Shown here: piece by piece, positions 2,861 to 51,290 of the stretch
Layout of the letters: every line of letters starts with the position of its first letter
Position numbering within the stretch: the stretch's first letter is position 1
Origin: Chloroflexaceae bacterium
GTDB taxonomy: Bacteria; Chloroflexota; Chloroflexia; Chloroflexales; Chloroflexaceae
Assembly (NCBI GenBank): GCA_028282325.1
Contig: JANQID010000077.1
Coordinates: forward strand, 124,001 to 188,000
Direction: 5' to 3'
Length of the DNA: 64,000 nucleotides
The notes under the pieces: model-generated
The model's input: the letters and a program-made list of their open reading frames with translations, nothing else
Told to the model about the DNA's origin: nothing
The model's database searches: none
Position numbers and translations under genes: made by a program

Positions 2861-3001
2861 CTACCAAACGATGCTACCCATGCCGCATGTCACCCTGCAC
2901 GGCGCCGCTGGCAGCGTGCAGGGTCTCGGCGTTGGGGGAATCGGAGATTCTTCGCTGCGCTCAGAATGACACCATACGGTGTCTCCCATATTGTTTGGTA
3001 G
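2861..3001 (+). repeat. R1 palindromic element, copy 1 (141 bp)
   Basis: The element begins CTACCAAACG and ends TTTGGTAG, so its ends are inverted repeats. The interior carries a GTCACCCTG block and a TTCTTCGCTGCGCTCAGAAT block that also occur in the other R1 copies in this window. It lies between the permease and the ATPase of one importer and has no plausible coding frame. Its length is identical to the four array units at 44411-44974. It behaves like a miniature non-autonomous element and could fold into a long hairpin within the transcript. Confidence 0.85.
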
Positions 3002-8339: not shown

Positions 8340-8465
8340 TATAGCAATCCTGTCCGGTTTGTGAATACCCAAAACCTGCCAAGTGCGGCGTAACAAGCTT
8401 CGTGAACGGACATAGCCATAGTTTGCTGCACCTGACAGGTTTCTATGTCGCGTATGATTACTATA
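8340..8465 (+). repeat. R2 element, copy a (126 bp)
   Basis: The element starts TATAGCAATCC and ends GATTACTATA, so its ends are imperfect inverted repeats. The interior blocks GTGCGGCGTAACAAGC and GCACCTGACAGG recur in the copies at 9742 and 38597. It has the same 126-bp length as copy b and is non-coding. Confidence 0.75.
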
Positions 8466-9741: not shown

Positions 9742-9867
9742 TATAGCAATCCTACCCAATGTGTGAAGATCCAAGACCTGTCAGGTGCAGCATACCGAGC
9801 TGCGCGAAGAGGCATGGTCACGGGTTGCCGCACCTGACAAGTTCCTCTGTCGTGTAGGATCGCTATA
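9742..9867 (+). repeat. R2 element, copy b (126 bp)
   Basis: Its ends TATAGCAATCCTAC and GTAGGATCGCTATA are inverted repeats with one mismatch. It shares the interior GCACCTGACAAG/ACCTGTCAGGTGC pairing with copy a and is the same length. An R1 element begins 22 bases downstream. Confidence 0.8.
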
Positions 9868-9889
9868 CCACTACGCTATTCGCCGGGAG

Positions 9890-10018
9890 CTACCAAACGA
9901 TAATGAACAGGCCGTATGTCACCCTGAGCGGAGCGAAGGGTCTCGGCGTCCCCAACAGCCGGGATTCTTCGCTGCGCTCAGAATGACCGCTTGCGGTAGA
10001 TCCAAATTCGTTTGGTAG
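9890..10018 (+). repeat. R1 palindromic element, copy 2 (129 bp)
   Basis: It starts CTACCAAACG and ends CGTTTGGTAG, with the same interior GTCACCCTGAGCGGAGCGAA and CTGCGCTCAGAATGACC blocks as other R1 copies. It is 12 bp shorter than the 141-bp form, the loss lying in its left part. It is non-coding. Confidence 0.85.
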
Positions 10019-24759: not shown

Positions 24760-24771
24760 AGAGCAACCGTC

Positions 24772-26517: not shown

Positions 26518-26547
26518 AATTTACAGATATGAGCAATTAGGAGAAAT

Positions 26548-27300
26548 GTGTTGCAACAGGAAACCACGATTAAAACCGAACCTGCAATGAAGAAAGAAGA
26601 TCAGCTGATTGAGCCGCGCGTGCTCGACCCACGCACACAGATTTTGGTGCTGATTCTCATTAGCGTCATCTTTTTTTCTTTGAGTGATTTGCTGCTCGAA
26701 GTGGCATGCATGGTCATGATCGGCCTGATCTTGATCTGGCAGGGGATGTGGAAAACTGCGTTGAAATACTGGGCATTTTACGCTGGAACGATGCTGTTTT
26801 TTTTATTCTCGCTTGAATATCCCAATATGCTGATTTCAATGATTGGCATTCTGTGCGTTGCATTGAGAAAGGTTATCCCCAGTTTCATGTTTGCCACGGC
26901 CATTATTGAAAAAACCAAGGTGGGGAAGCTCGTTTCAGCCTTGCAAGAAATCCGCCTCCCCAAAGGTCTGATTATTGCCTTTGCGGTGACAATTCGATTT
27001 TTTCCCACTTTGAAAGAGGAATATTGGCTGGTGATCAATGCGATGCGCATGCGCGGCATTCGATTTTCATTGAAAAACCTGATCCTTCGCCCCATGTTGG
27101 TGATGGAAAGCATTCTTATTCCAATCATGCTGCGCATGTCTGTGATTGCAGATGAGCTGGCGGTTTCATCGGTGACGCGGGGGATCGATTCAAACAGAAA
27201 ACGGACTTCTTACTACAAAAACCGGTTCATTTGGATGGATGGCGTGGTGATTCTTATCTTCTCGGTTCTCGCTATTTTGGCAATTATTACTGGAAACTAA
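26548..27300 (+). CDS. ecfT: ECF transporter transmembrane subunit EcfT
   Basis: The 250-residue membrane protein couples the S component to the ATPase in an energy-coupling-factor importer. It has about five to six hydrophobic segments and the coupling-helix motif INAMRMRGIRF near residues 165-175, the A-R-G signature of EcfT. The start is GTG at 26548 with AGGAGA six bases before; an ATG at 26587 is the alternative. From here to about 29466 the DNA is visibly richer in A/T than the flanks, suggesting separate ancestry. The stop is two bases before the ATPase start. Confidence 0.88.
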   Translation: MLQQETTIKTEPAMKKEDQLIEPRVLDPRTQILVLILISVIFFSLSDLLLEVACMVMIGLILIWQGMWKTALKYWAFYAGTMLFFLFSLEYPNMLISMIGILCVALRKVIPSFMFATAIIEKTKVGKLVSALQEIRLPKGLIIAFAVTIRFFPTLKEEYWLVINAMRMRGIRFSLKNLILRPMLVMESILIPIMLRMSVIADELAVSSVTRGIDSNRKRTSYYKNRFIWMDGVVILIFSVLAILAIITGN

Positions 27301-27302
27301 TC

Positions 27303-28775
27303 ATGATCAGCATAAAAAACGTCAAATTTTCTTATGATGACAGCGAGAATTCTGGATTGGATGAACTCTCTTTGCACATTCCCAAAGGGCAATGTGTTTT
27401 GCTGGCGGGTGTTAGCGGTTGTGGAAAAACCACATTGCTGCGTTTGATCAACGGGTTGATTCCCCGCTTCTATTCGGGTGAGTTAAGCGGCCAGGTGGAG
27501 ATCGATGGGCAAGCAGTGAACGGCTACGACACGGACGATCTCTCGCAAAAGGCAGGCTGTGTCTTTCAAAATCCGCGCAGTCAGTTTTTTAATGTGGACA
27601 CGACCAGTGAGATTGCCTTTGGTTGTGAAAATCTGGGGTTCACGCGGAAAGAGATTCACAGGCGTGTGGATGAAACGGTCAAGGCTTTGGGCATTACTCA
27701 TTTGCTGGACAAAAGCATTTTTTCTCTGTCGGGTGGCGAAAAGCAGATGATTGCCATCGCGTCGATTTATGCGATGGGCGTGGATATTTTCCTGATGGAT
27801 GAGCCGTCTTCAAATCTGGATGCGGTGGCTACGCAGCAGCTCAGAAAAATGATTGAAAGGCTGAAAGCTGAAGGCAAAACGATTGTGATTGCGGAACACC
27901 GGCTCCATTATCTGAAAAATGTAGTCGATCGCGTACTGCATTTGAAAGAAGGTCAGGTTGCAAACGATTGGACAAGCACAGAATTCCAGGCGCTGGGAAC
28001 AGCTGAATTAGGAGCCAACGGACTGCGGTCATTGTCGTTCCATCATCTGATTAACGAAGAACCCAATAAGGTGGATTCTGCTGATACGCAGCTTCAAATT
28101 GAAGACCTTTGGGTTTCTTATGAGCCGAAGCAGTATGTCGTCAAAGAGGTCTCGCATGTTTTTCATCAGGGGGAGATTGTGGGGCTGGTGGGGCATAACG
28201 GACAGGGTAAATCTACATTGGCTCGCTGTTTGTGCGGCATGGTCAAGGAAAAGCGAGGGACGGTTTCATACGATAACACCCTCATGCCTCATAAGAAACG
28301 GATAGGCAATATCTATTTGGTGATGCAGGATGCGACCAGTCAATTGTTCAGCGACAGCGTTCTCGGCGAACTTGAGCTGTCTTGTCAGGCCAGAAAGGAA
28401 GACAGCCCATACACAAATGACGAGATTTTGGACATGTTTTCGCTGTCACACCTGCATGATCGCCATCCGATTAGCTTGTCTGGTGGTGAAAAACAGCGAC
28501 TGGCGATTGCGGCCGGGATGGCACAGAACGCTGATGTGATCATTCTGGATGAACCCACGAGTGGTCTGGATCATCAGAACATGAAGCGGGTAAAAGAGGT
28601 CATGAAAGTGCTGCGGCAGAATGGAAAAATGGTGTTGGTGATTACGCATGATTTTGAGTTTTTGCTCAACACGTGTGACCGCGTCTTGATTATTGAAGAT
28701 GGGACCGTGCGGACGGATTACCATCTGGATGAGGCGCATTTCTCGCAAATTAACAAGTTTTTTTTGATTGATTGA
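27303..28775 (+). CDS. ECF transporter ATPase, two ABC domains fused (EcfA-EcfA')
   Basis: The 490-residue protein joins the two ECF ATPases in one chain. Domain 1 has GVSGCGKTTLLRLINGLIPR, LSGGEKQMIAIASI and IFLMDEPSSNLD. Domain 2, from about residue 265, has GHNGQGKSTLARCL, LSGGEKQRLAIAAGM and VIILDEPTSGLD. The start at 27303 follows the EcfT stop by two bases; an upstream in-frame ATG lies inside ecfT and is not favoured. Codon use is A/T-leaning like ecfT. It supplies ATP hydrolysis for the S subunits encoded just downstream. Confidence 0.9.
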   Translation: MISIKNVKFSYDDSENSGLDELSLHIPKGQCVLLAGVSGCGKTTLLRLINGLIPRFYSGELSGQVEIDGQAVNGYDTDDLSQKAGCVFQNPRSQFFNVDTTSEIAFGCENLGFTRKEIHRRVDETVKALGITHLLDKSIFSLSGGEKQMIAIASIYAMGVDIFLMDEPSSNLDAVATQQLRKMIERLKAEGKTIVIAEHRLHYLKNVVDRVLHLKEGQVANDWTSTEFQALGTAELGANGLRSLSFHHLINEEPNKVDSADTQLQIEDLWVSYEPKQYVVKEVSHVFHQGEIVGLVGHNGQGKSTLARCLCGMVKEKRGTVSYDNTLMPHKKRIGNIYLVMQDATSQLFSDSVLGELELSCQARKEDSPYTNDEILDMFSLSHLHDRHPISLSGGEKQRLAIAAGMAQNADVIILDEPTSGLDHQNMKRVKEVMKVLRQNGKMVLVITHDFEFLLNTCDRVLIIEDGTVRTDYHLDEAHFSQINKFFLID

Positions 28776-28781
28776 TGTATT

Positions 28782-28814
28782 AGGTGACAGTCATGTGGAA
28801 AGTGACTATCACCT
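28782..28814 (+). promoter_or_regulatory. Hairpin between ECF ATPase and S-component genes
   Basis: AGGTGACAGTCA pairs with TGACTATCACCT with one mismatch across a nine-base loop, directly ahead of the TTTAGGAGGAGG ribosome site of the next gene. It could be an operator or an mRNA structure setting expression of the S components relative to the ATPase. Confidence 0.5.
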
Positions 28815-28830
28815 TTAGGAGGAGGACCTA

Positions 28831-29466
28831 ATGAGTGAGAATATTGTGCAGGATGAGGTAACGGCCGTTAACCCCCAAAATAACAAACTGGTCGGTAGAG
28901 ATTTTATAACCATTGGTATTTTTACCTTGGTCTTGATTGTCGTGTTCTTTGGCATTGCCACAGCAGTGTCATTGATTCCTATTGGCTTTGTCTTTTCTTA
29001 TGCAGTAGCTGGAATTCCGATTGGGATCATCTTTATGTATGTGCTCGCCAAAGTGCCGAAAAGAGGCGCAGTTGCAATCATGATCACAGTGATGGCCGTA
29101 ATCTTTTTCCTCATGGGTGCGCCCGGCTTGATGGCTCCTGGCGCTTTTGTAGGCGGCATTGTCGCCGAGATAATCATCAGTTCCGGTAAATATAAAGTGT
29201 TCTGGCGAAATCTTCTTGGATATGTCGCTTACCTCACCATTAATTGGTATGGGCATATGCACACAATGATATTTGCAACTGAATCATATACGGCCGAAAT
29301 GGTCGCTACTGGCCTGACCGTAGAATCCCTGCAACCGATGCTCAATTTCATCAATGGCCCATTCTTCTCTCTGGTGTTAGCAGCTACCGTCGTCGGCGGA
29401 ATCCTCGGTGCGCTTCTGGGCCGTAAGACCCTGAAAAAGCATTTCGAGAAAGCCGGAATCGTCTGA
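28831..29466 (+). CDS. MptD-type ECF substrate-binding (S) component, copy 1
   Basis: The 211-residue integral membrane protein has about six hydrophobic segments. Motifs typical of the MptD/Trep_Strep S-component family are LVGRDFITIGIFTL, a YAVAGIPIGIIFMYVLAKVPKRG loop, LMGAPGLMAPGAFVGGIVAE and GGILGALLGRKTLKKHF. S components bind the substrate in the membrane and share the EcfT/EcfA engine. AGGAGG lies before the ATG. The substrate of this family is not firmly known to me; its company here suggests a metal chelate or tetrapyrrole. Confidence 0.85.
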   Translation: MSENIVQDEVTAVNPQNNKLVGRDFITIGIFTLVLIVVFFGIATAVSLIPIGFVFSYAVAGIPIGIIFMYVLAKVPKRGAVAIMITVMAVIFFLMGAPGLMAPGAFVGGIVAEIIISSGKYKVFWRNLLGYVAYLTINWYGHMHTMIFATESYTAEMVATGLTVESLQPMLNFINGPFFSLVLAATVVGGILGALLGRKTLKKHFEKAGIV

Positions 29467-29469
29467 TTT

Positions 29470-29600
29470 GGGTGCGTTTCATTTGTTTTAAGACAAGCGG
29501 AGACTGAGCCTGTCGAAGTCGTAGCGGCCTCTGCACTCGACCGCCTTTGCCTTCGACAAGCTCAGGCGACGGCTATGTTCTAAGTAGATGAAACACACCC
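29470..29600. mobile_element. R4: 131-bp miniature element with 9-bp target duplication
   Basis: The ends GGGTGCGTTTCAT and ATGAAACACACCC are inverted repeats with one mismatch. GTCTGATTT lies immediately outside both ends (29461-29469 and 29601-29609), a perfect direct repeat of the kind left by transposition. The interior holds a second inverted pair, CTGAGCCTGTCGAAG and CTTCGACAAGCTCAGG. It has no coding capacity and sits between the two S-component genes. Confidence 0.8.
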
Positions 29601-29622
29601 GTCTGATTTGAAGGAGAAAAAC

Positions 29623-30228
29623 ATGTCTGACACACAGCAAAAGTCCAAGTTAGTTAGTAGAGACTTTATCACGATAGGTATTTTTTCCTTGATCATGATC
29701 GTTATCCAGATCGTATTCGATTCTCTGATGGCATTGAGCGCTATCGCTTTTCCATTTACGTACGCTGTGGCCGCGATTCCGGCGGGGATTGTCTTTATGT
29801 ATGTAGTCGCCAAAGTGCCAAAAACAGGCGCAATTGCGCTCATGAGTACGGTGGTGGCTCTGATCTATTTCCTCATGGGTGCGCCCGGTTTAATGCCGCT
29901 TGGCGCCTTTATCGGCGGCATTGTCGCCGAGGCGATCATCAGTTCCGGCAAGTACAAGAGCTTTTCCAGAAATGCCATCGGGTTCGTGGCTTTCATAGCT
30001 ATCTGGTGGTTTGGGCATATGACCAATATGCTTTTCTTCGCCGAGTCTTATATCGCAGAGATGACGGCCATGGGCATAGCCGAGGAAACTATGGCGCCGA
30101 TGATCTCCTTTGTCAATGGGCCAATGTTCTTTTTGGTGTTGGCGCTCACCCTTGTCGGGGGCATCTTGGGTGCGTTCCTGGGGCGCAGAACCCTGAAAAA
30201 GCATTTTGTAAAGGCAGGTATTGTCTGA
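29623..30228 (+). CDS. MptD-type ECF S component, copy 2
   Basis: The 201-residue paralog of the preceding gene keeps the full motif set: LVSRDFITIGIFSL, YAVAAIPAGIVFMYVVAKVPKTG, LMGAPGLMPLGAFIGGIVAE, GGILGAFLGRRTLKKHF. The ATG at 29623 is used because GAAGGAG lies six bases upstream; the TTG at 29608 is unlikely. A 131-bp mobile element separates it from copy 1. Two S subunits next to a single T/A engine suggest two related substrates, or alternatives that compete for EcfT. Confidence 0.85.
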   Translation: MSDTQQKSKLVSRDFITIGIFSLIMIVIQIVFDSLMALSAIAFPFTYAVAAIPAGIVFMYVVAKVPKTGAIALMSTVVALIYFLMGAPGLMPLGAFIGGIVAEAIISSGKYKSFSRNAIGFVAFIAIWWFGHMTNMLFFAESYIAEMTAMGIAEETMAPMISFVNGPMFFLVLALTLVGGILGAFLGRRTLKKHFVKAGIV

Positions 30229-30229
30229 T

Positions 30230-32017
30230 ATGGCAGCGAGGCAAGAAAGCAAAAATCAGGGGCTTTGGGCGATCACGGTTCCTGTTAAAACCCATATGGC
30301 GGCAGGGGTAGTTCTCGCCGCTGTAAGCGGCGTGCTGTTGATTGCCGGTAACGTTATGCTGGCGCAGGTGGTGACGATTGTCGCCGGTGGTGAGCTGGCG
30401 ATCTTTGGCCTGGCTTTCGGTTTCAGAGAGGCTTTCTGGCTCCTGACGGGGCTGATCGTTCTCACCTATGCCATCCGTGGCTACAGCTTCATCATCTCCC
30501 ATCTCGGGGCGTTCAGGCTCGAAGAGATACTCAGGACTGACCTGACGGAACGCCTGGCGGATATGCCGCTCGGCTATGTGATTTCAACGGGAACTGGCGC
30601 TCTGAAGAAGGTGCTGTTGGATGATGTGAAGAATCTGCATGCCTTCGTTGCCGACAGTACCCCGATGATCGGGAAGAGCGTGGCGACACCCATCGCTTCC
30701 CTCGTTGCCATGCTTCTCATTGATTGGCGGCTGGCTCTTGTGGCTGTGGGCGTGCTTGTTCTGGGCATGATCCTTATGTATGCAGCCATGAAGGATGACG
30801 CCACCTACAGGAAGCAGTATGAACAAAGCCAGTCGGACATCAACAAAGCGGTGATCGAGTTTGTTCAGGCTATGCCGGTGGTGCGAACCTTTGACGACGG
30901 GACAACCTCTTTCAAACGCTACAATCTGGCGCTGGAACGCTACAGACATCATACGAAGGCGTGGATCGAGTTGACGGCCCTACCGGGCAAGATCGCGCTG
31001 ATCATTCTCAGTCCGCTCCCGACGCTTCTGGCGGTAACCGCAGCCGGAATTCTTTTTGTGACCGGTGGCAGTCTGAGCCTATTTGGACTGATGGCTTCGC
31101 TGATGGTCAGCACCGGCATGGCAGACACACTGATGCCGTTAATGTGGTTCAACCAAGCGCTTAAGAAATCTAATGCGGCAGCCGAGCGGATCCAGGAAAT
31201 CCAGGGATTACCGACGCTGGACAAGACAGAGGAACCTCAGATACCCGAACGTTTCGATGTCACCCTCGAGGACGTTACCTTCCGCTATGGGGAAGAGGAC
31301 ATCTATGCGCTGAAGAACGTCAGTTTCCATGTCCCGGAAAATACCACCACGGCCCTGGTAGGCCCTAGCGGTGCCGGCAAGAGCACCGTAGCCAGGCTGA
31401 TTCCCAGGTTCTGGGACGTAACCGAAGGCTCCATACGGATTGGCGGGGTGGATGTCCGGGATATGACCACGGAAACGCTGATGGACACGGTTTCCTTCGT
31501 CTTCCAAGACACGTTCCTGTTCAATGATACGCTGGCGGGCAATATCCGGATTGCGGCACCGGACGCTTCGGATGAAGCAGTGAAGGCGGCAGCGAAAGCG
31601 GCCCAGATTCATGACTTCATCATGAGTCTGCCCCACGGTTACGACACCCTGGCCGGCGACCGGGGCACCAACCTGTCCGGCGGGCAGAAGCAGCGGATCA
31701 CCATTGCCCGCGCCATCCTCAGGGACGCGCCGGTCATTGTGCTGGATGAGGCCACCGCCTTTGCAGACCCGGAAAACGAAGATGAGATCGTCAAGGCGCT
31801 CTCCAACCTGTTGAAACAAAAGACTGTCATCGTCATTGCCCACCGGTTATCCACCATCAAGGATGTCGGCCAGATCGTGGCCTTCGACCATGGGGAAGTG
31901 ACCGAGAAGGGCCGCCACGATAAACTCCTGGCCTTGGACGGCACCTATGCAGCGCTTTGGAAGAACTACACCCTGGCCCAGAACTGGGACGTTCAACACA
32001 GCGGGGGTGCGCGATGA
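30230..32017 (+). CDS. ABC transporter, YbtP/IrtA-like half (pair B, subunit 1)
   Basis: The 595-residue half-transporter has the same arrangement as pair A: exporter-fold membrane domain, then GPSGAGKSTVARLIPRFWD, NLSGGQKQRITIARAIL and VIVLDEATAFADPENE. It begins two bases after the S-component stop (ATG at 30230; a TTG at 30221 overlaps). It is the more divergent of the three first-subunit genes in the window. Its closeness to the S components suggests that the ECF importer and this pair act on one substrate, one perhaps handling import and the other transfer or export. Confidence 0.87.
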   Translation: MAARQESKNQGLWAITVPVKTHMAAGVVLAAVSGVLLIAGNVMLAQVVTIVAGGELAIFGLAFGFREAFWLLTGLIVLTYAIRGYSFIISHLGAFRLEEILRTDLTERLADMPLGYVISTGTGALKKVLLDDVKNLHAFVADSTPMIGKSVATPIASLVAMLLIDWRLALVAVGVLVLGMILMYAAMKDDATYRKQYEQSQSDINKAVIEFVQAMPVVRTFDDGTTSFKRYNLALERYRHHTKAWIELTALPGKIALIILSPLPTLLAVTAAGILFVTGGSLSLFGLMASLMVSTGMADTLMPLMWFNQALKKSNAAAERIQEIQGLPTLDKTEEPQIPERFDVTLEDVTFRYGEEDIYALKNVSFHVPENTTTALVGPSGAGKSTVARLIPRFWDVTEGSIRIGGVDVRDMTTETLMDTVSFVFQDTFLFNDTLAGNIRIAAPDASDEAVKAAAKAAQIHDFIMSLPHGYDTLAGDRGTNLSGGQKQRITIARAILRDAPVIVLDEATAFADPENEDEIVKALSNLLKQKTVIVIAHRLSTIKDVGQIVAFDHGEVTEKGRHDKLLALDGTYAALWKNYTLAQNWDVQHSGGAR

Positions 32018-33786
32018 GTAGGAAAAGTTATACACCTTTCAGAGAGCTTTACAGACTGGCTCTGGCAGCTATCGGAGAGAAGCAAGCCAATTACAAAGAG
32101 TCTGTGAGATGGTTCATCGTGACCTATATTGCCCAGGGGATTGCCTTCGGTCTGTTCTATCCCCTGCTGAAAAGCATCTTTGCAGAGACACCGGATACGA
32201 AAAAGACCTTGATGCTCTTCGGCATTATGGCCGCCGTCACCGTCCTGTCTCTTTATGCCAAGTGGAAGGGGCACGGCTTTGATTTCTCCGGCAATATCGT
32301 CGATATCGCCCACGACATGCGCACCAGACTGGGTGTCAGTCTGCGCCGGATGCCCCTTGAAAAGCTGTCAACCTACAAGACGGGGGAACTGAATGCCATC
32401 TTTTCCAATAATGTGGAAGAATCGGGCCTTACCCTGGGGATCATAACCGCCATGATCGTGGAACTGATTTTCGTTCCGTTGACCATGGTGGTCGTGACTT
32501 TGTTCGTGGACTGGCGTCTAGCCCTGTTCATGGTGGTTTTGTTTCCGCTGGCTATCCCATTGTACGACAGGATCAGAAATACCAATGTGGCAGAAAAGTC
32601 TGCTTTCAATCGTGCCAACGCAGACCTGGAGGCCGGCTTCATCGAATATATTCAGGGATTGCCCGTATTGCGAGCGGCGAACAGGACCGGGGCCAATGAA
32701 GAGAAGTTGCAGGACGCCATAAAGAAGGCCAGAAGTACCCAGGTCTCCGGTCTCTACAGAACCCAGATCCCCTATTTTCTGATGGGTATCCTCATCCAAG
32801 CGGTGCTGCTGCTTCTGCTGTTCTTTGGCGCCGGTTTCGTGCTGGAAGACACACTGACTCTGGTGACCCTGGCCGCCTGTATCACAGTTGTAGTGCGACT
32901 TGTGGAGCCTTTGTCGCTGTTTGTGGCAGTCATCAACCTCTTTGAAACCACCGACATAGCCTTGGGCAGGATCAATGAAGTTCTTGAAATTGAGCCGCTG
33001 GCAGTCCATGAACCGGCGGACAACTCTGTGGGTCATGATATCCGTTTTGACGGCGTTGATTTCACCTATGAGGGACAGTCTGAGAAAACGATCAAGAATT
33101 TGAGCTTCCACACGCCCGAGAGAACAATGACGGCCATCGTCGGTCATTCCGGCTGCGGCAAGACCACCCTGACCAAGCTGCTTATGCGTTATGCGGATGT
33201 ACAGCAGGGCAGTATCCGTATCGGGGGTGTGGACATTCGGTATATGACCCAGGAAGACTTGATGAGCCATTTTTCGATGGTCTTCCAGGATGTATATCTC
33301 TTTGACGATACGGTGATGAACAACATCCGTATGAATAACCCCAATGCTACCGATGAAGAAGTGAAGCAGGCGGTGCGAGCAGCTCACTGTCACGAATTCA
33401 TCGCGAGGCTTCCGGAAGGATATCAGACCACCATCGGTGATATCGGTGGCAGCCTGTCCGGCGGCGAACGTCAGCGGATCAGCATTGCCAGAGCCATCCT
33501 GAAGGATGCCCCCATCGTCATTCTAGACGAGCCAACCGCGGCTTTGGATACGGAAAGTGAAGTCTCCGTTCAGCAGGCCATCGACAAACTGGTGGAAAAC
33601 AGAACCGTCATTGTCATCGCCCACCGGCTGTCGACCATCGTCGGTGCTGACCGGATTCTGGTCATGGACAGTGGTGAGATTATCGAACAGGGCCGGCATC
33701 GCGAGTTGATGGCCCTGGAAGGCAAATACTATGCTATGTGGGCCGCCCAGCAGCGCGCCAAGGCCTGGTCGGTTGTTGAAGATTAG
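32014..33786 (+). CDS. ABC transporter, YbtQ/IrtB-like half (pair B, subunit 2)
   Basis: The 590-residue partner overlaps the preceding stop as ATGA. Its ATPase has GHSGCGKTTLTKLLMRYAD, LSGGERQRISIARAIL and IVILDEPTAALDTESE. Its membrane domain includes YIAQGIAFGLFYPLLKSIF and RRMPLEKLSTYKTGELNAIF. It keeps the IrtB-side ATPase ending. The N-terminus is about 20 residues longer than in pairs A and C. No signal peptide. It is followed 20 bases later by pair C. Confidence 0.88.
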   Translation: MSRKSYTPFRELYRLALAAIGEKQANYKESVRWFIVTYIAQGIAFGLFYPLLKSIFAETPDTKKTLMLFGIMAAVTVLSLYAKWKGHGFDFSGNIVDIAHDMRTRLGVSLRRMPLEKLSTYKTGELNAIFSNNVEESGLTLGIITAMIVELIFVPLTMVVVTLFVDWRLALFMVVLFPLAIPLYDRIRNTNVAEKSAFNRANADLEAGFIEYIQGLPVLRAANRTGANEEKLQDAIKKARSTQVSGLYRTQIPYFLMGILIQAVLLLLLFFGAGFVLEDTLTLVTLAACITVVVRLVEPLSLFVAVINLFETTDIALGRINEVLEIEPLAVHEPADNSVGHDIRFDGVDFTYEGQSEKTIKNLSFHTPERTMTAIVGHSGCGKTTLTKLLMRYADVQQGSIRIGGVDIRYMTQEDLMSHFSMVFQDVYLFDDTVMNNIRMNNPNATDEEVKQAVRAAHCHEFIARLPEGYQTTIGDIGGSLSGGERQRISIARAILKDAPIVILDEPTAALDTESEVSVQQAIDKLVENRTVIVIAHRLSTIVGADRILVMDSGEIIEQGRHRELMALEGKYYAMWAAQQRAKAWSVVED

Positions 33787-33806
33787 ATGTGCTGGTGTTA
33801 TGAGAA

Positions 33807-35612
33807 ATGACGAAAGAAACTGAACAAAAAGAACTTGGACTGTGGGGAATCATCGCCCCGGTTAAGTGGCAGATTTATGGCGCTATGGCTATGGCAGCCA
33901 TCGGCAGTATCGCCTGGATTGCCTCGCTGGTCTTGATTCTCCCCATCGGACGCGAAATCCTGGGCGTATCGCCCGATATGGGACGCCTGTGGCAACTCTG
34001 GGGACTGATGCTGGTAGCGGTGGTCGTCGCCCTGGTGTTGCGGACGCTGTCATTCAGAACAGCGCACCTCGGCGCTTTCAGGCTGGAGCAGATACTGCGC
34101 ACCCAGTTGACCACGCACCTGGCCAAAGTGCCGTTGGGTTACGTGATCACCACCGGCTCCGGCGCACTCAAAAAGGTGCTGATGGATGATGTCCTCAGCC
34201 TGCATACCTTCGTCGCAGATAGTACCCCATTTATCGCGCGGGCTTACACGACACCGTTGGTGGCGCTGGTCTTGATGTTCATTGTCGATTGGCGCATGGC
34301 GCTGCTCTCTCTGGCCGTTTTTCCCGTAGGTATGGTTGCCATGTACTATGGCACCAAAGACTTTGCTACCGAGCGCGTAGCCTACGATGCGGCTAGTGAA
34401 CAGATCAACCGCACCATCATTGAGTACGTGCAGGGCATGCAAGTTGTCCGCACCTTTGACGATGGGACGGTCTCCTTTCAGCGCTATCACGATGCCTTGA
34501 CCAACGCCACCGAGACGATGCGTAATTGGGCCGGCAAGTCACAGACCGGTGCCTATATTGCGCGTACCCTTTTTGCCGCCTTGCCGACGCTGGCCGTTGT
34601 CACCCCCATCGGCATCTGGTGGGTTTATCAAGGATGGCTCGACATACCCACCCTGATCTTTTTTGTCTTTCTTGCGCCCACGGTGGCTGAATCGCCGGTG
34701 AATATTATGTGGCTGAACCAACTGCTCAACCAATCCAGTGCCGGCGCCAAGCGCATCGGCGTTCTGCTGAATGAGCCGATCCTTCCCCAGCCGGTCAACT
34801 CCAACGCGCCGCGCAATGCCGGCGTCACCTTCCGGGATGTCTCGTTCACCTACGCCGGCCGCGAAGATGCCGCGTTGCAACACGTCAACCTGCGTATGGA
34901 ACCGGGTACGGTCACGGCGCTGGTCGGGCCGTCCGGCGCGGGCAAGAGTACCGTCGCCCAGCTCATCCCGCGCTTTTGGGACGTGAATGAGGGAGCGGTG
35001 CTGGTGGGTGATGTGGATGTACGTGAGATGAGCAGCGACGATCTGATGAAGCAGGTCAGCTTTGTCTTCCAAAATCCCTACCTGTTGCACGATACCCTCC
35101 GCGAGAATATTCGCCTGGGCAAGCCCGATGCCTCTGATGCAGAGGTGCAGGCCGCCGCCGAGGCCGCCCAGGCGCACGAATTCATCATCAACGAGCTACC
35201 CGACGGTTACGATACACTGGCCGGCGACCGGGGCACACAGCTTTCCGGCGGACAGCGCCAGCGCGTCACCATGGCCCGCGCCATCCTCCAGGACTGCCCC
35301 ATTGTGGTGCTGGACGAAGCGACCGCCTTTGCCGACCCGGAAAACGAGGCCAAAATCCACGCCGCCATCGCCAATCTCACAGCGGGAAAAACGCTGATTG
35401 TGGTGGCGCACCGCCTGTCTACCATTCAGGATGCGCACCAGATTGTAGTTCTGGACAAGGGCCGCGTCGCCGAAATTGGCGACCATGACACGTTGGTGGC
35501 GGCTGGCGGGGTCTATGCCGGACTGTGGAGCAAGTTTTCGGAAGCGCAAGATTGGGGATTGCGGCGTAATTCGCCGCCAACCGCCAACCAGACAGGGGAG
35601 GTGGCATCATGA
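33807..35612 (+). CDS. ABC transporter, YbtP/IrtA-like half (pair C, subunit 1)
   Basis: The 601-residue protein is a near twin of the pair A first subunit. Shared stretches include KVPLGYVITTGSGALKK, RTIIEYVQGMQVVRTFDDGT and ATAFADPENEAKIHAAIANL. Walker A (GPSGAGKST) lies near residue 374 and the signature is LSGGQRQRVTMARAIL. Duplication of the whole pair is therefore likely. The 3' end overlaps the next ATG by four bases. Codon choice is more G/C-rich than in pair A, so the duplication is not very recent. Confidence 0.88.
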   Translation: MTKETEQKELGLWGIIAPVKWQIYGAMAMAAIGSIAWIASLVLILPIGREILGVSPDMGRLWQLWGLMLVAVVVALVLRTLSFRTAHLGAFRLEQILRTQLTTHLAKVPLGYVITTGSGALKKVLMDDVLSLHTFVADSTPFIARAYTTPLVALVLMFIVDWRMALLSLAVFPVGMVAMYYGTKDFATERVAYDAASEQINRTIIEYVQGMQVVRTFDDGTVSFQRYHDALTNATETMRNWAGKSQTGAYIARTLFAALPTLAVVTPIGIWWVYQGWLDIPTLIFFVFLAPTVAESPVNIMWLNQLLNQSSAGAKRIGVLLNEPILPQPVNSNAPRNAGVTFRDVSFTYAGREDAALQHVNLRMEPGTVTALVGPSGAGKSTVAQLIPRFWDVNEGAVLVGDVDVREMSSDDLMKQVSFVFQNPYLLHDTLRENIRLGKPDASDAEVQAAAEAAQAHEFIINELPDGYDTLAGDRGTQLSGGQRQRVTMARAILQDCPIVVLDEATAFADPENEAKIHAAIANLTAGKTLIVVAHRLSTIQDAHQIVVLDKGRVAEIGDHDTLVAAGGVYAGLWSKFSEAQDWGLRRNSPPTANQTGEVAS

Positions 35613-37363
35613 TTAGCCTCTATCAACGAATGATGCGTGTTGCCGGGTCAACGGCTCCGCTCCTGCGCGCTTCAATGTTCATCACCATCGCCAGCGCCAT
35701 TGTGCAGGGCATTATGTTTGCCATGCTCTACCCGTTGTTCCATGAACTCATCTATCCCGACGAGAACAGCATCCGCCGGCTGGTGATCCTCGGTGGTATT
35801 CTGGTCGGCCTGGTTTTGATTGATGCCGCCCTGCGGTTCATCATCAATCGCTCTGATTGGGAGAGCTATATTGTGGCCGGGCATGAATTACGGATCAAGC
35901 TGGGCGAGCAACTGCGCCGCATCCCGCTGGAAGACCTCAACGACCGCAGAGTCGGCGAACTGAATGTGGCGCTCAGCGGGCATGTTGACTATGTGGTCAT
36001 GGTCTTGAGTGGTCTGTACAACATAGTCCTTTACACCATCATCGCGCCCGTCACCACCCTGTTGATCACACTCTTTGTCGATTGGCGTCTGGCGCTGGCC
36101 CTGGGGTTGATCTTTCCCTTTGTGATACCACTCTATCGCCGGATCAGAGTTCTTTCCGCTTATGGATTTCGCGCTTCGGGAGAGGCCCACGAAACGGTAA
36201 CGTCTAACCTGATTGAGTACGCGCAGGGGCTGGGCGTGTTACGCGCCACCCGGCAGGTCGGCCCGCAGTCGGTGCGGCTACAAGACTCGCTGGAGAATCT
36301 GCGTCAAAAGCAAAGTACGGCCCAGAACTGGAAGACCATTCCCGGCCTGATGATTGCCACCGTGGTGCAGGTGGGCATTCTGATAGTGACCCTCCTTGGC
36401 CTGCTGTGGGTTGTGGGCGGCAGTCTGGATGTGGCAATTATGTTGGCGCTGTTTGCCATTATGGTCCGCTACTCCGAGACGTTGGCGATGTTTGCCAATA
36501 TGACCACGATGTTTGACATTATGGAAACCGCCCTTGAGCGGATTGATGAACTGCTGGACATAGAGCCGTTGCCCATCAATCAACCTCACGGGAACATCGA
36601 GCGTTTTGACATCACCTTTGATGAGGTTGATTTTGAATATGCGGCAGACGATGACAGTTCACTTGACGGCCAGGTTCTGCACGATGTGTCGTTCAACCTG
36701 CCGGAGCGAAGTCTGACGGCGCTGGTCGGCTCATCGGGGAGCGGCAAGACAACTATCACAAAGCTGATCACGCGCTACGCAGACCCACAAAAAGGTGCCA
36801 TCAAAATCGGTGGGGTCGATATTCGGTCACTGGAGCAAAAGGAATTAATGCGGCATGTTTCGGTGGTCTTTCAGGATGTTTACCTGTTCGACGACTCTAT
36901 TCGGGACAACATCCGTATGGCGAAACTGGACGCCACCGACGCGGAGGTGGAAGCGGCGGCCACAGCAGCCAACTGCCACGAGTTTATTACGCGCTTGCCG
37001 GATGGTTATGACACAACAGTTGGTGAGATTGGCGGTTCGTTGTCGGGCGGCGAACGGCAGCGAATTTCGATTGCGCGGGCCATTTTGAAGGGTGCGCCTA
37101 TCGTTTTGTTGGATGAGCCAACGTCGGCGTTGGATACGGAAAGTGAAGTGGCGGTGCAGCGGGCTATCGACAAGCTGGTGGAAGACAAGACGGTCGTTGT
37201 GATCGCGCACCGGCTGTCCACGGTAGTAGCGGCGGATACGATTTTGGTGTTGGATGACGGGCGACTCGTCGAACGCGGCACGCACGATGCGTTGATGGCA
37301 GAAAACGGCCGCTACGCCGCTATGTGGAACGCCCAACAGCAAGCGCGCCGGTGGAAGGTTTAG
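35609..37363 (+). CDS. ABC transporter, YbtQ/IrtB-like half (pair C, subunit 2)
   Basis: This 584-residue protein is the counterpart of the pair A second subunit, with the same ATPase (GSSGSGKTTITKLITRYADP, LSGGERQRISIARAIL, IVLLDEPTSALDTESE) and the same C-terminus WNAQQQARRWKV. The Walker A begins GSSG instead of GPSG, still functional by family standards. It is the last gene of the long plus-strand run. No clear terminator follows, only a palindromic element about 95 bases on. Confidence 0.88.
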   Translation: MISLYQRMMRVAGSTAPLLRASMFITIASAIVQGIMFAMLYPLFHELIYPDENSIRRLVILGGILVGLVLIDAALRFIINRSDWESYIVAGHELRIKLGEQLRRIPLEDLNDRRVGELNVALSGHVDYVVMVLSGLYNIVLYTIIAPVTTLLITLFVDWRLALALGLIFPFVIPLYRRIRVLSAYGFRASGEAHETVTSNLIEYAQGLGVLRATRQVGPQSVRLQDSLENLRQKQSTAQNWKTIPGLMIATVVQVGILIVTLLGLLWVVGGSLDVAIMLALFAIMVRYSETLAMFANMTTMFDIMETALERIDELLDIEPLPINQPHGNIERFDITFDEVDFEYAADDDSSLDGQVLHDVSFNLPERSLTALVGSSGSGKTTITKLITRYADPQKGAIKIGGVDIRSLEQKELMRHVSVVFQDVYLFDDSIRDNIRMAKLDATDAEVEAAATAANCHEFITRLPDGYDTTVGEIGGSLSGGERQRISIARAILKGAPIVLLDEPTSALDTESEVAVQRAIDKLVEDKTVVVIAHRLSTVVAADTILVLDDGRLVERGTHDALMAENGRYAAMWNAQQQARRWKV

Positions 37364-38596: not shown

Positions 38597-38856
38597 CTCT
38601 CGCTGTACTACTGATTTGTGCCGATCCAAAACCCGTCAGATGCGGCGTGATGAGCTTCGTGAATAGATATGGCTACGGGTTGCCGCCAAACCATAATTGG
38701 ATGTACCGCATGCGGTCATTCTGAGCGCAGCGAAGAATCCCCGGCTTTGAGGTCGAGACCCTTCCCCTTCGCTTTGCTCAGGGTGACATGCGGTATGACT
38801 TTGATCGTTTGGTTGCCGCATCTGACAGATTTCTCTGTCGCGTAGGATCGCTACAG
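38597..38856 (+). repeat. R2 element, copy c, split by an R1 insertion
   Basis: The left part (38597-38685) and the right part (38813-38856) align to R2 copies a and b. Removing R1 and one TTGCCG leaves about 127 bp, the length of an intact R2. The left terminal bases are degraded. R3 begins within the last few bases, so three elements are stacked here. Confidence 0.75.
38686..38812 (-). mobile_element. R1 element, copy 3, inserted in R2 with TTGCCG duplication
   Basis: CCAAAC and GTTTGG bound a reverse-oriented R1 whose interior has the ATTCTGAGCGCAGCGAAGAA and CTTTGCTCAGGGTGACATGC blocks. TTGCCG occurs on both sides (38680-38685 and 38813-38818). Those bases belong to R2 and occur once in the intact R2 copies, so they are a target-site duplication. 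Confidence 0.8.
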
Positions 38857-38957
38857 AGAGAGAGCAGCCTAAGAATAGACAATCGAGGACTGCCAGTCCT
38901 CGAAGGACTGGCAGTCCTACAGCCACATTGTACGACCTCTAACTGATTTATCTATAT
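38852..38957 (-). repeat. R3 element, copy 1 (about 106 bp)
   Basis: It runs from TACAGAGAGAGAGCAGCC to TTTATCTATAT. It contains a perfect hairpin, GAGGACTGCCAGTCCTC followed by GAAGGACTGGCAGTCC. The same sequence, inverted and lacking one arm, is at 51191-51277. Confidence 0.7.
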
Positions 38958-41054: not shown

Positions 41055-43979
41055 CTACTCAAACTTATCCGGGTACAGACCTTTGGCTACGTCTTCAACG
41101 GCATCCACATTGCGAATGCCGAGCGTAGTGGCGCTAAACGGAACAATGATGAAGCGCTCGTCCTGCACGGCGCTGATGTCGGCATAGGCCGGGTTGGTGG
41201 TCAACAGTTCGATTTTTTCGTCCGCAGTCGACCAGTCGGCTTCGATAATGACGATGGCCTCCGGGTTGCGGTCAATCACTTCTTCCCAACTGACGGTGGC
41301 CCAGTTGCCCTCCGCATCGGCAAAGATGTTTTCGGACCCAATCTGGCGAATGATCTCGTTGGGGGTGCCGCAGCAAGCCCCGGCAAGAGCATCGTCGGTG
41401 CCGCTGTCGTACCAGAAGATTTTTACCGGTTCAGCTTCGTCGCCAATCGTTGCGATCACCGCTTCCAGCCGGGCCTGCATATCGGCCACCAAAGCCTCGC
41501 CTCGCTCCGGCACGCCAAAGATGGCCGCGATGTCTTTGATTTCGTTGTAAACGGTTTCCATTGTGGCGGATTCCGGGCGGAGGACCTCGTCTTCGCAGGA
41601 AACCGCCGACAGGTAGGAGTCGATGTCCAGCCCCAGCAGCTCTTCACGCGGCCCGGCGGCTTCATCGCCAAAGGCGCTGCGATACGCACCGTAAACAAAG
41701 TCCGGCTCGCTGGTAAACAGAATTTCCTGCGAGGGGTACTTTTCGGCCAGCACAGGCACGCTGTTGTAGGCCTCGGCCAGCGACGGCAGAATTTTGTCAT
41801 CTATGTAGGCCGTGCCAACCATTTTGTCTTCCAGTCCCAGCGCCAACATCACCTCGGTGGAGGCCTGATTCATGGTAACGGCCCGTTCCGGCGGGGCATC
41901 GTAGCTATAGGTCAGGCCGCAGTTGTCGATGGTGAGGGGGAAGGTGGAAGTATCGTCCCCGGCGGCAGCGGCGCTTTCTTCGCCGCCGAATTTTTCGGGA
42001 TAGAAGCCTCTGGCCAGCGTTTCCACCGCGTCGGGATTGCGGACGCCTTCAAAGACGCTGGGCAGGGGTAGCACGACAAACCACTTGTTTTGAATGGCTG
42101 GCATACTGCTGAGGGCTGGACTGTTAAGCAGAAAGTCTATTTTTTCCTCAGCCGGAGTTTCGCCATAGTCGTTGATGACGATGACGTCAGGGTTGCGGGA
42201 TACGGCCTCTTCCCAACTCACGGTGGTCCAATTTTTCTCAACGTCGTCAAAAACGTTCCGCCCACCGGCCAGACCAATCAGGTGCGTTTGCAAAGATTGG
42301 CCGGCGGTGAACAAATCATCCGTACCAAAATCATAAACCAGCACCCTGACCGGCTCGGATATATCGCCCACTTGGGCCTGAGTTGCGGCAATTTCATCTT
42401 TCATCGACTGAATCATCGCCTCAGCCCGGGGCTGAATATCAAAGATTTGGCCCAACTTGTGGATGTCTTCGTAGACGTCGTCCATCGTGGCGGCCTCAAC
42501 CAGCGTGCCTTTTACAGTGTAGGCGTTGATGCCCAGCGCGGCTAAATCTTCCGGCGTACCTACACCATCGGCGCGGTGAGCACTCTCGCGGCCGTAGCTA
42601 AAATCGGGCTCGGCGGCCGCCAGCACTTCCATTGATGGGTATTTTTCTGCCAGAACGGGAATGTTGTTGTAGGCTTCTTCAAATTCGGGCAGAATGACCG
42701 CGTTGCCATAGGCCGTACCGACCATTTTGTCAGCTAGCCCTAATGCCAGCATGATTTCGGTGGTGTGCAGGTTGAGGCTAACGGCTTGTTCCGGGGCTTG
42801 CTCAAAGGTTAAGGTGACGTCACCGTTTTCGATGGTTAGCGGGTACCCTGTCGCTAGTGACTCAGCAGGCATCGAGGCTGCTTCTTCGTTGCCAAACTTG
42901 TCGGGATAGAATGCTTCGGCCAGGGTACGGGTGCGGGCTACGTTGCGCGGTCCGGGCGTGGCTTCGGCGTAGGTCAACACTACAAATCTATCGTTTTTAA
43001 TGGCGTCAACGTCGACCAGCGCCGGTTGACTCTTTAAAAAGTCAATCTTGCCCTGGGCGTCCGGCTCGTCGTAATCGATGATGACGATGTGCTGCGGATT
43101 GCGATCAACCACATCTTCCCAATTGACGCGGGTCCAACTGCTGTCAACGTCGTTGAAAATGTTGGCGCCGCCGGCGGCTTCGATCATCGCATTGGGCATG
43201 GCAAACTTGGCCGCAGTCAGCGGGGTGTCATCGCCGCTGTCGTAGACAAACACCCGCATAGGGGTCTCTACTGCACCAATTGATTGCTCAATTTCAGCCA
43301 GTTCGGCCCGGTATTGGTCAACCTTCGCCTGCGCTTGATCTTCAACGCCAAAAATGCGGCCAATGTTGAGCAAGTCGGTGAAGGTGTCTTCCAGGCTCAC
43401 CTGCTCGCGCTCCATTATGCGAATACACGACTCTGTCAGCACATAAGATTTGATGCCGTACTGCTCCAGCTCAACCGGGGTGATGCCTTTCTCCTCGGAA
43501 AAGCCGTAGCTCCACCCGGCAAAGAAAAAGTCCGGCTCGGCTCCCACCAATACTTCCAGGTCGATGTATTTGGGCGAAAGCTGCGGCACGTCGGCCAGTA
43601 GTTGACGGTAATCTGCCCCAACCATACGCGTATCATTGATGCCGCTGTAGCCGACCAGTTTGTCGGCCAAGCCCACATCCAGAAAAATCTCGGTGATATT
43701 GACATCGCTGGTGACGGCTCGTTCCGGTGGCGCATCGAAGGTGACCGGTTCGCCGCAGCTTTCGACGGTGACGGGGAAGCCGGTCAGGTCGACCTCAGCC
43801 GATAACTCCCCCGGCTGACTTTCTGCAGCAGTTGTGACCTCTTCCTCAGCGACCGATTCTTCTGCCGCGCTTTCTTCCTGGGCCGGAGCGTTCTCGGCAG
43901 CAGGCTCCGGCGCTGCTGTACCGCAAGCTGCCAGTGCCAGCAGCCAGAAAATTATGAAGATTTTGCTTAGGTGTTTCAT
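41055..43979 (-). CDS. Triple-domain BtuF/FepB-like binding lipoprotein
   Basis: The 974-residue product is a lipoprotein (signal ending LLALAACGTA) with an acidic Ala/Glu linker and three tandem helical-backbone binding domains beginning near residues 67, 379 and 679. Each domain repeats FPVTVESCG/YPLTIENGD/FPLTIDNCG, then APPERAVT-like, ALGLxDKMVGTAY, W..V.WE..V.RNP..IVI and a closing YPDKF/YPEKFG. Domains 1 and 3 keep the ESCG/DNCG cysteine, which domain 2 lacks. A normal BtuF has one such domain. GAGGAG precedes the ATG. The cobalamin riboswitch upstream implies a corrinoid ligand, although iron-chelate ligands use the same fold. Confidence 0.93.
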   Translation of the reverse strand: MKHLSKIFIIFWLLALAACGTAAPEPAAENAPAQEESAAEESVAEEEVTTAAESQPGELSAEVDLTGFPVTVESCGEPVTFDAPPERAVTSDVNITEIFLDVGLADKLVGYSGINDTRMVGADYRQLLADVPQLSPKYIDLEVLVGAEPDFFFAGWSYGFSEEKGITPVELEQYGIKSYVLTESCIRIMEREQVSLEDTFTDLLNIGRIFGVEDQAQAKVDQYRAELAEIEQSIGAVETPMRVFVYDSGDDTPLTAAKFAMPNAMIEAAGGANIFNDVDSSWTRVNWEDVVDRNPQHIVIIDYDEPDAQGKIDFLKSQPALVDVDAIKNDRFVVLTYAEATPGPRNVARTRTLAEAFYPDKFGNEEAASMPAESLATGYPLTIENGDVTLTFEQAPEQAVSLNLHTTEIMLALGLADKMVGTAYGNAVILPEFEEAYNNIPVLAEKYPSMEVLAAAEPDFSYGRESAHRADGVGTPEDLAALGINAYTVKGTLVEAATMDDVYEDIHKLGQIFDIQPRAEAMIQSMKDEIAATQAQVGDISEPVRVLVYDFGTDDLFTAGQSLQTHLIGLAGGRNVFDDVEKNWTTVSWEEAVSRNPDVIVINDYGETPAEEKIDFLLNSPALSSMPAIQNKWFVVLPLPSVFEGVRNPDAVETLARGFYPEKFGGEESAAAAGDDTSTFPLTIDNCGLTYSYDAPPERAVTMNQASTEVMLALGLEDKMVGTAYIDDKILPSLAEAYNSVPVLAEKYPSQEILFTSEPDFVYGAYRSAFGDEAAGPREELLGLDIDSYLSAVSCEDEVLRPESATMETVYNEIKDIAAIFGVPERGEALVADMQARLEAVIATIGDEAEPVKIFWYDSGTDDALAGACCGTPNEIIRQIGSENIFADAEGNWATVSWEEVIDRNPEAIVIIEADWSTADEKIELLTTNPAYADISAVQDERFIIVPFSATTLGIRNVDAVEDVAKGLYPDKFE

Positions 43980-44345: not shown

Positions 44346-44410
44346 TATTCAATTTTCACGGCGAGAACTCTACTATGAATGCGCAAAATTGTCAAAAAAT
44401 CATGATGAAG

Positions 44411-44974
44411 CTACCAAACGATGATACCCATGCCGCATGTCACCCTGAACGGAGCAGCCGGCAGCATGAAGGATCTCGGCGTTGGGGGAATCTGAGATTC
44501 TTCGCTGCGCTCAGAATGACCGCTTGCGGTAGATCCAAATTCGTTTGGTAGCTACCAAACGATGATGCGTATGCTGCATGTCACCCTGACCCTGAGCGAA
44601 GCGAAGGGGAAGGGTCTCAATGGCCTTGGAGTCCGAGATTCTTCGCTGCGCTCAGAATGACCGCTTGCGGTAGATCCAAATTCGTTTGGTAGCTACCAAA
44701 CGATGCTACCCATGCCGCATGTCACCCTGAACGGAGCCGCAGGCGGAGGGATGGGTCTCGATGGCCTTGGAATCCGAGATTCTTCGCTGCGCTCAGAATG
44801 ACCGCTTGCGGTAGATCCAAATTCGTTTGGTAGCTATCAAACGATGACGAGTATGCTGCATGTCACCCTGAACGAAGCCGCAGGCGGAGGGAAGGGTCTC
44901 GATGGCCTTGGAGTCCGAGATTCTTCGCTGCGCTCAGAATGACCGCTTGCGGTAGATCCAAATTCGTTTGGTAG
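44411..44974 (+). repeat. Tandem array of four 141-bp R1 elements
   Basis: Unit borders are 44411-44551, 44552-44692, 44693-44833 and 44834-44974; each is exactly 141 bp. Every unit begins CTAYCAAACGATG and ends TTCGTTTGGTAG, so each junction forms the palindrome TTTGGTAGCTACCAAA (one base differs at the last junction). Units share TGACCGCTTGCGGTAGATCC and vary mainly in their left halves. There are no unique spacers, and no coding sense. Confidence 0.92.
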
Positions 44975-50970: not shown

Positions 50971-51290
50971 GCGTTGTATCCGTCTCTGAAGCAGAATCTC
51001 TTGCAGAGATCGCAGAATTCTGCAGATATTTCCTGGCCATAGGCTATGATACGGCAACTACGGGCTGCGATTGTACCAGAAATACCCCGGCCTGCAAAGG
51101 AAACGGGGCGTTGGAGAGGAGGGATGTGCTATAATCGGGCGCGATTTTCCGAAGATGCGCAACCTATGCCGCAACATTGACCGCCGGTCGCTATAGATAA
51201 ATCAGTTAGAGGTCGGACAATGTGACTGGAGGACTGCCAGTCCTTGATTGTCTACTCTTAGGCTGATCTCTCTATATACAGATAACGCCT
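50971..51290. other. Divergent promoter region with an R3 copy
   Basis: This 320-bp gap separates the two arms of the glycan island. It holds R3 copy 2 (51191-51277). A TATAATCGGGCGCG stretch near 51129 could serve as a -10 element for the rightward arm. No gene seen. Confidence 0.45.
51191..51277 (+). repeat. R3 element, copy 2 (about 87 bp)
   Basis: It begins CTATAGATAAATCAGTTAGA and ends GATCTCTCTATA. It is the reverse complement of copy 1 at 38852-38957 apart from point changes and a missing 17-bp hairpin arm in the middle. It ends 14 bases before the next gene, so the element may contribute to that gene's leader. Confidence 0.75.

What the first reader, a model, noticed from the sequence alone, without database searches (positions are those of the whole stretch)
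38597..38957. Nested miniature elements: R1 inserted into R2, with R3 abutting
R2 copy c is split by an inverted R1. TTGCCG is duplicated on both sides, and the rejoined R2 regains its normal length. R3 begins at the end of R2. This gives a relative order of insertion and shows that R1 transposed.
Basis: seen in the sequence. Interest (0 to 1): 0.7.

Follow-up and report, generated by a model that had tools for sequence, protein, structure and literature searches.

The report
Nested miniature transposons carrying palindrome cargo
A roughly 127-base miniature jumping element really did land inside another miniature element here, but comparing some ninety copies shows that the element normally duplicates only 2-3 bases of its target, not the 6 seen at this site, and that it carries a palindrome pair which related bacteria carry inside other transposon shells.

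Summary
Confirmed: at 38598-38956 an R1 element (38686-38812, inverted) splits an R2 element. TTGCCG flanks R1 on both sides. Removing 133 bp restores a gap-free R2 of 125 bp, against 126 bp in copies a and b. R3 abuts R2 and shares its terminal TATA. A second R1-in-R2 nest exists elsewhere in the genome, at another R2 position (L037). R1 is therefore a real transposing miniature element.

Corrected: the 6-bp duplication is not R1's rule. R1 ends are TACCAAAC...GTTTGGTA. Of 74 non-tandem copies with both TAs, 52 have a 2-bp and 9 a 3-bp duplication (61 in all; shuffles average 21, maximum 33). The 6-bp rule fits 2 of 74. The window copy is the outlier: both terminal TAs are replaced, giving an exact 6-bp repeat, while its closest relative (95% identical) follows the 2-bp rule. 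The R2/R3 order cannot be decided.

Beyond the finding: R1's interior is a head-to-head pair of GTCA-tagged imperfect palindromes that resembles CGTC-REP dimers. In relatives the same cargo sits in other terminal-repeat shells, one of them TACCAA-type with 3-bp TNA duplications. No autonomous partner was found. Verdict: a new variant of a known kind (a REP-bearing MITE).

The parts
38598..38685 (+). R2 copy c, left part (degenerate left end TCTCGCTGTACTA corresponding to TATAGCAATCCTA)
   Evidence: aligns to R2 copies at 8340-8465 and 9742-9867 and to L032-L037
38680..38685 (.). TTGCCG, left copy of the 6-bp duplication
   Evidence: sequence; single in the empty R2 copies
38686..38812 (-). R1 element, CCAAAC...GTTTGG, 127 bp, inverted relative to the other R1 copies of the window; contains a head-to-head pair of GTCA-tagged palindromes
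   Evidence: 95% identical to L171 (C88:22866-23001)
38813..38818 (.). TTGCCG, right copy of the 6-bp duplication
38819..38855 (+). R2 copy c, right part, ending GGATCGCTACA (TATA in other copies)
38852..38956 (+). R3 element, TATAGAGAGATCAG...CTGATTTATCTATA ends, internal AGGACTGCCAGTCCT hairpin; shares TACA with the R2 end
   Evidence: fold z-score -4.2
8340..8465 (+). R2 copy a (uninterrupted)
9742..9867 (+). R2 copy b (uninterrupted)
2862..3000 (+). R1 copy with TA ends
9889..10015 (+). R1 copy with TA ends and GC duplication
   Evidence: L031
44409..44974 (+). head-to-tail array of four R1 copies joined as GGTA-GC-TACC
51192..51275 (-). second R3 copy of the window (one hairpin unit shorter)

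Best explanation
R1 is a non-autonomous miniature inverted-repeat transposable element (MITE), usually 127-139 bp from TACC to GGTA, with ends TACCAAACGAT.../...GTTTGGTA. A DDE-type transposase supplied in trans, not found in this assembly, inserted it at palindromic targets (about GWMGCKWC), duplicating 2 bp and less often 3 bp. In the window one R1 landed in the 3' arm of an R2 element, so R1 is younger than that R2. R3, a TATA-ended element, sits against the R2 end. R1's cargo is a head-to-head dimer of GTCA-tagged imperfect palindromes (REP-like). Shown: nesting, empty sites, the TSD rule, end conservation, copy number, and other shells around the same cargo. Inferred: transposase type (an IS5-like IS1031/ISL2 group, or IS30-like, judged from TSD length) and mobilisation in trans. 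The exact 6-bp duplication with lost TA ends at the window copy is an aberrant insertion or a later local conversion event, not the rule.
For: 61/74 non-tandem TA-ended copies have a 2-bp or 3-bp direct repeat just outside the TA (shuffled mean 21, maximum 33 of 10,000); duplicated sequences vary (GC, GA, TC, GT, AC, TA; GAC, GTC, CCA, TTA, GTA). Palindromic target preference. Two independent R1-in-R2 nests with restored empty sites. 287 cores and at least 223 left ends per 4.6 Mb. Nearest-neighbour identity median 94%, best 98.4%. TACCAA-type shells in relatives with 3-bp TNA duplications: L071 TAA, L082 TTA, L088 TAA, L075 TAA and L084 TCA. IS1031-group elements insert at TNA with 3-bp repeats (PMC12016507); ISDge6, listed as IS5 (ISL2)-like, has TCA repeats (PMC7674623).
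Against: No element with these ends and a transposase gene was found. A whole-genome end pattern gave no paired ends; PF13936, PF01609, PF00665 and PF13358 hits carry other ends or none; a scan of about 1.3 Mb found none. 13 of 74 copies show no duplication. No recent activity is evident (no identical unlinked copies).
Confidence: 0.88

Rival explanations
1. R1 is an element without TA ends (CC...GG) that makes 6-bp duplications; the flanking TAs of other copies are target preference (TANNTA).
For: The window copy and L029 show exact 6-bp repeats, and tandem junctions read TAGCTA.
Against: Non-tandem copies carry TA on both inner sides with different outer bases: 6-bp identity in 2/74 against 0.9 expected, while the inner 2 bp match in 52/74. 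L037 keeps TA ends around a TA duplication in a known empty site. The nearest relative of the window copy, L171, has TA ends with a GC duplication.
Confidence: 0.04
2. At the window copy, R1 inserted by the usual 2-bp rule (GC) and three later point mutations changed its terminal TA bases so that they happen to extend the repeat to 6 bp.
For: Net insert length is the same under both readings (127+4+2 = 133). Other single copies have lost one TA (L150, L161, L181, L199).
Against: R1c differs from L171 at about 6 of 127 interior positions but at 3 of 4 terminal TA bases, and all three match the neighbouring target bases; my rough estimate is of order 1e-5.
Confidence: 0.2
3. Gene conversion from another R2 copy ran up to the R1 boundary and replaced the terminal TA on each side with R2 sequence, lengthening the apparent duplication from 2 to 6 bp.
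For: The replaced bases are exactly those of uninterrupted R2 copies (GCGGCAACCC), and several R2 copies exist in the genome.
Against: R2 copies are only 70-86% identical to one another, which should make conversion rare; no tract was demonstrated.
Confidence: 0.25
4. R1 is a REP/BIME-type repeat moved by a RAYT (IS200-like tyrosine transposase), not a DDE-type MITE.
For: The interior is a head-to-head pair of tagged palindromes, the usual arrangement of REP dimers (PMC3733652).
Against: IS200/RAYT movement makes no target duplication (general knowledge), whereas R1 has 2-3 bp duplications and terminal inverted repeats. No RAYT-like HxH motif in about 1.3 Mb sampled. 62 of 66 sampled core loci sit inside R1 shells rather than alone.
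Confidence: 0.05

Closest known systems
QMITE2 of Coxiella burnetii (PMC5896051)
   Same: 150-190 bp MITE with terminal inverted repeats and direct repeats that contains a REP palindrome, mostly intergenic or 3' UTR.
   Different: QMITE2 holds a GTAG REP and has 7-11 bp repeats; R1 holds a GTCA-tagged head-to-head pair and has 2-3 bp repeats and other ends.
CGTC-tagged REP dimers (Di Nocera et al. 2013, PMC3733652)
   Same: Short tagged palindromes, mostly head-to-head dimers; tag CGTC often changed to TGTC; AT next to the tag; some dimers lie inside longer palindromes.
   Different: Those authors found no dedicated transposase for CGTC REPs and list five phyla for them, Chloroflexi not among these. 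Here the pair is cargo of a transposing element with target duplications; tags are GGTC/TGTC, the stem has two mismatches and the loop is 3 nt.
IS5 family, IS1031 and ISL2 groups
   Same: 3-bp TNA duplications (PMC12016507; ISDge6 TCA in PMC7674623) resemble the TAA/TTA/TCA duplications of TACCAA shells in relatives.
   Different: Terminal sequences differ (GAACCTG..., AGACC...). No IS5-type transposase with TACCAA ends found. R1 itself mostly duplicates 2 bp.
IS30 family
   Same: 2-3 bp duplications and IR-2bp-IR junctions (general knowledge) resemble the R1 rule and its GGTA-GC-TACC tandem junctions.
   Different: No IS30 transposase found: only weak helix-turn-helix hits.

Membership tests
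MITE (non-autonomous DDE-type element) | Short (70-300 bp), no coding capacity | tested here: met
   R1 mean 132 bp CC..GG; R2 about 126 bp; R3 about 105 bp; frames through the repeats are mechanical only
MITE (non-autonomous DDE-type element) | Terminal inverted repeats conserved between copies | tested here: met
   TACCAAACGA / TCGTTTGGTA in 91 copies; caveat: some copies were collected by their left-end pattern
MITE (non-autonomous DDE-type element) | Target-site duplication of fixed short length | tested here: met
   2 bp in 52 and 3 bp in 9 of 74
MITE (non-autonomous DDE-type element) | Matching autonomous element with transposase | tested here: not met
   none in this assembly by end pattern and four Pfam families; commonly missing for MITEs, so it does not exclude membership
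IS30-mobilised element | IS30 transposase (HTH_38 + rve) present | tested here: not met
   PF13936 hits weak and not IS30; two rve hits without R1 ends
IS5 family (IS1031/ISL2)-mobilised element | 3-bp TNA duplication | tested here: inconclusive
   met in five TACCAA shells of relatives; R1 mostly 2 bp
IS5 family (IS1031/ISL2)-mobilised element | IS5-type transposase between the same ends | tested here: not met
   five PF01609 hits; those classified by NCBIfam are IS4 or IS701 type and none has R1 ends; PF13359, PF13586 and PF13340 were not searched
CGTC REP superfamily | CGTC (or TGTC/CCTC) tag at one end | tested here: inconclusive
   half-cores read GGTCATTCT... and TGTCACCCT...
CGTC REP superfamily | 8-9 bp stem, 4-5 nt loop, short unpaired tail, head-to-head dimers | tested here: inconclusive
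   5+2 bp stem with two mismatches, 3-nt loop; dimers head to head
RAYT-mobilised REP | RAYT gene in the genome | tested here: inconclusive
   no motif in about 1.3 Mb of 4.6 Mb; the rest not searched

The most novel reading that the evidence does not exclude
The GTCA-tagged palindrome pair is a portable cargo that rides in several different transposon shells: TACCAAACGA (R1) and AGTGGCTCAACTACGA in this genome, and TACCAATTCGA, TACCAATTGG and TACTACAACGAGAC in relatives. That would be one answer to how REP-like palindromes lacking their own transposase spread: they are borrowed by, or selected within, many unrelated MITEs.
Probability: 0.35. Interest if true: 0.65.

Novelty: new variant of a known kind. 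Interest (0 to 1): 0.42.

Why it matters
Nested miniature elements are common, but this nest gives clean empty sites, and the genome-wide test turns one anecdote into a duplication rule (2-3 bp, palindromic target). The shell-and-cargo pattern bears on an open question stated in print: CGTC REPs seem to lack a dedicated transposase and may be mobilised by a broad spectrum of transposases (PMC3733652). R1 shows that such a dimer can move as the interior of an ordinary inverted-repeat element.

Tried and rejected
(1) 6-bp rule: rejected by 74 copies. (2) IS30, IS5/IS4, rve and IS630 transposases as the R1 partner: none has R1 ends. (3) An IS4 element flanked by R2-like ends (L160) looked at first like R2's autonomous parent. 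Its own inverted repeat is CAATACCATTCAAATAA with a 10-bp duplication TCTTTACGAC, so it is a separate element that inserted into an R2-like one. (4) Candidate R1-like ends elsewhere (C14, C22, C34, C39, C53, C55, C118, C135) have no partner end. (5) Rfam: only chance-level hits. (6) Plasmid and phage collections: no R1. (7) Literature searches for the core sequence or its translated peptide: nothing.

Full report
Observation. The region reads exactly as described. TTGCCG stands at 38680-38685 and again at 38813-38818, on either side of a 127-bp segment CCAAAC...GTTTGG. That segment is an inverted copy of a repeat (R1) present at 2.9, 9.9 and 44.4-45.0 kb; the sequences on either side are the two halves of a repeat (R2) present uninterrupted at 8340-8465 and 9742-9867. 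Removing 133 bp (38686-38818) gives a gap-free R2 through the junction, 125 bp long against 126 bp in copies a and b. R3 (38852-38956) starts in the last four bases of R2, TACA here and TATA in the other copies.

Copy number. The window lies in a 4.62-Mb, 140-contig genome assembly. The R1 core has 287 matches with at most two mismatches, and the reversed control has none; the left end has 223. R2 has about ten matches and R3 about fifty, partial ones included. Many contigs begin or end inside R1, as expected for a dispersed repeat.

The rule at R1 ends. I collected 91 unique copies with both ends. Nearly all carry TA outside CC and GG, so the ends are TACCAAAC...GTTTGGTA. Among 74 non-tandem copies with both TAs, the two bases outside TA are identical in 52 (GC 31, GA 9, TC 5, GT 3, AC 2, TT 1, TA 1), and nine more have a 3-bp repeat (GAC 3, GTC 3, CCA, TTA, GTA). 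Together 61 of 74, against a shuffled mean of 21 and maximum of 33 in 10,000. The 6-bp rule fits 2 of 74 (0.9 expected). Copies with 2-bp repeats sit in a palindromic target of the type GWMGCKWC, which resembles R1's own junction GTAGCTAC and explains the head-to-tail array at 44409-44974, whose members are joined as GGTA-GC-TACC. Caveat: part of the sample was found by a left-end pattern, which favours TA on the left; the copies found by BLAST show the same ends.

Second nest. In L037 (contig C43) R1 sits in another R2 copy at a different position: GTGAATA-[TACC...GGTA]-TAGACATGG, where R2 without R1 reads GTGAATAGACATGG, a 2-bp TA duplication. So R1 entered R2 at least twice independently.

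The window copy is odd. In R1 orientation it reads GCGGC-AACCAAAC...GTTTGGCG-GCAACCC. Net length is what the 2-bp rule predicts, but three of the four terminal TA bases are replaced by the neighbouring R2 bases, which makes the repeat 6 bp. Its closest relative L171 is 95% identical and has TA ends with GC repeats. Because only about 6 of 127 interior positions differ, three independent terminal mutations that all match the target are unlikely (inference, of order 1e-5). An aberrant insertion or gene conversion by another R2 copy is more likely; I cannot decide between them.

Order of events. R1 after R2 is certain for this copy. R2 and R3 share one TATA, so either could have inserted at the other's end. 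R1 and R3 do not interrupt each other.

Partner. No autonomous R1 element was found. A whole-genome pattern for non-R1 TACCAAAYRA ends gave no pairs. HTH_38, DDE_Tnp_1, rve and DDE_3 searches gave few genes, none with R1 ends. An approximately 1.3-Mb scan for any TACCAA...TTGGTA element with a 2-3 bp duplication found only R1 pairs and one chance hit. Nearest-neighbour identity (median 94%, best 98.4%) suggests past rather than current activity. R2's partner is also unknown: an IS4 element inside an R2-like copy (L160) has its own ends and a 10-bp duplication.

Cargo. R1's interior is GTCA-CCCTGAGCGAAGCGAAGGG-TCTC facing GAGA-TTCTTCGCTGCGCTCAGAA-TGAC. The arms change together between copies (CC/GG, TT/AA; also GC and CG types in relatives). 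In this genome 62 of 66 sampled core loci lie by an R1 end, and at least three lie in another shell, AGTGGCTCAACTACGA. In other genera of the same family the core is kept but the R1 ends are not; instead it lies inside TACCAATTCGA, TACCAATTGG, TACCAAGTG and TACTACAACGAGAC shells. The five readable TACCAA shells carry 3-bp TNA duplications: L071 TAA, L082 TTA, L088 TAA, L075 TAA, L084 TCA. TNA with 3 bp is the habit of IS1031-group IS5 elements (PMC12016507), and TCA is reported for an ISL2-like IS5 element (PMC7674623). This makes an IS5-like enzyme my leading guess for the TACCAA lineage; IS30 remains possible for the 2-bp rule.

Known relatives. REP palindromes tagged CGTC/TGTC, mostly head-to-head dimers, were catalogued in 2013; the authors found no dedicated transposase and suggested mobilisation by a broad spectrum of transposases, and noted some dimers inside longer palindromes (PMC3733652). 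Coxiella QMITE2 is a MITE that holds a GTAG REP (PMC5896051). R1 is therefore a new variant of a known kind. Strict CGTC membership is not established: tags, stem and loop only partly fit.

Verdict. The 6-bp rule is wrong and is replaced by 2-3 bp plus conserved TA. The broader point, one palindrome-pair cargo in several transposon shells, is the more interesting lead, but it is not proven to be swapping rather than descent with diverging ends.

Noticed in passing
L160 (G000:C32:2608-3288 and flanks): A 1.48-kb IS4-family element (ends CAATACCATTCAAATAA, 10-bp duplication TCTTTACGAC) sits inside an R2-like element with a different hairpin; another nest.
   Followed up: partly
L164, L165: Two contigs of a public MAG labelled Chromatiaceae (JANQFI010000688.1, JANQFI010000346.1) carry R1 copies with the same flanking sequence as this genome (compare L014, L105), so they probably come from a close relative and were binned wrongly.
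   Followed up: partly
L165:9-3174: A reverse-transcriptase-like ORF (465 aa) lies next to cas1-like and cas2-like ORFs, with R1 between other genes nearby.
   Followed up: no
window 41055-43979: A single 974-aa ORF looks like three substrate-binding-protein domains in tandem, next to a permease and an ATPase of an uptake system.
   Followed up: no
window 23192-37363: A run of repeated ABC exporter genes (direct repeats of 60-82% identity at about 1.8-kb spacing).
   Followed up: no
window 38636-38926 and L165:5578-6174: Mechanical ORFs through the R1 core read as peptides such as CHPERSEGEGSRR..RFFAALRMT; likely spurious gene calls wherever this repeat occurs.
   Followed up: no
L249:8644, L226 (minus strand 19871), L264:4414: The same palindrome cargo in a second shell, AGTGGCTCAACTACGA...TGAGCCACT, in this genome.
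   Followed up: partly
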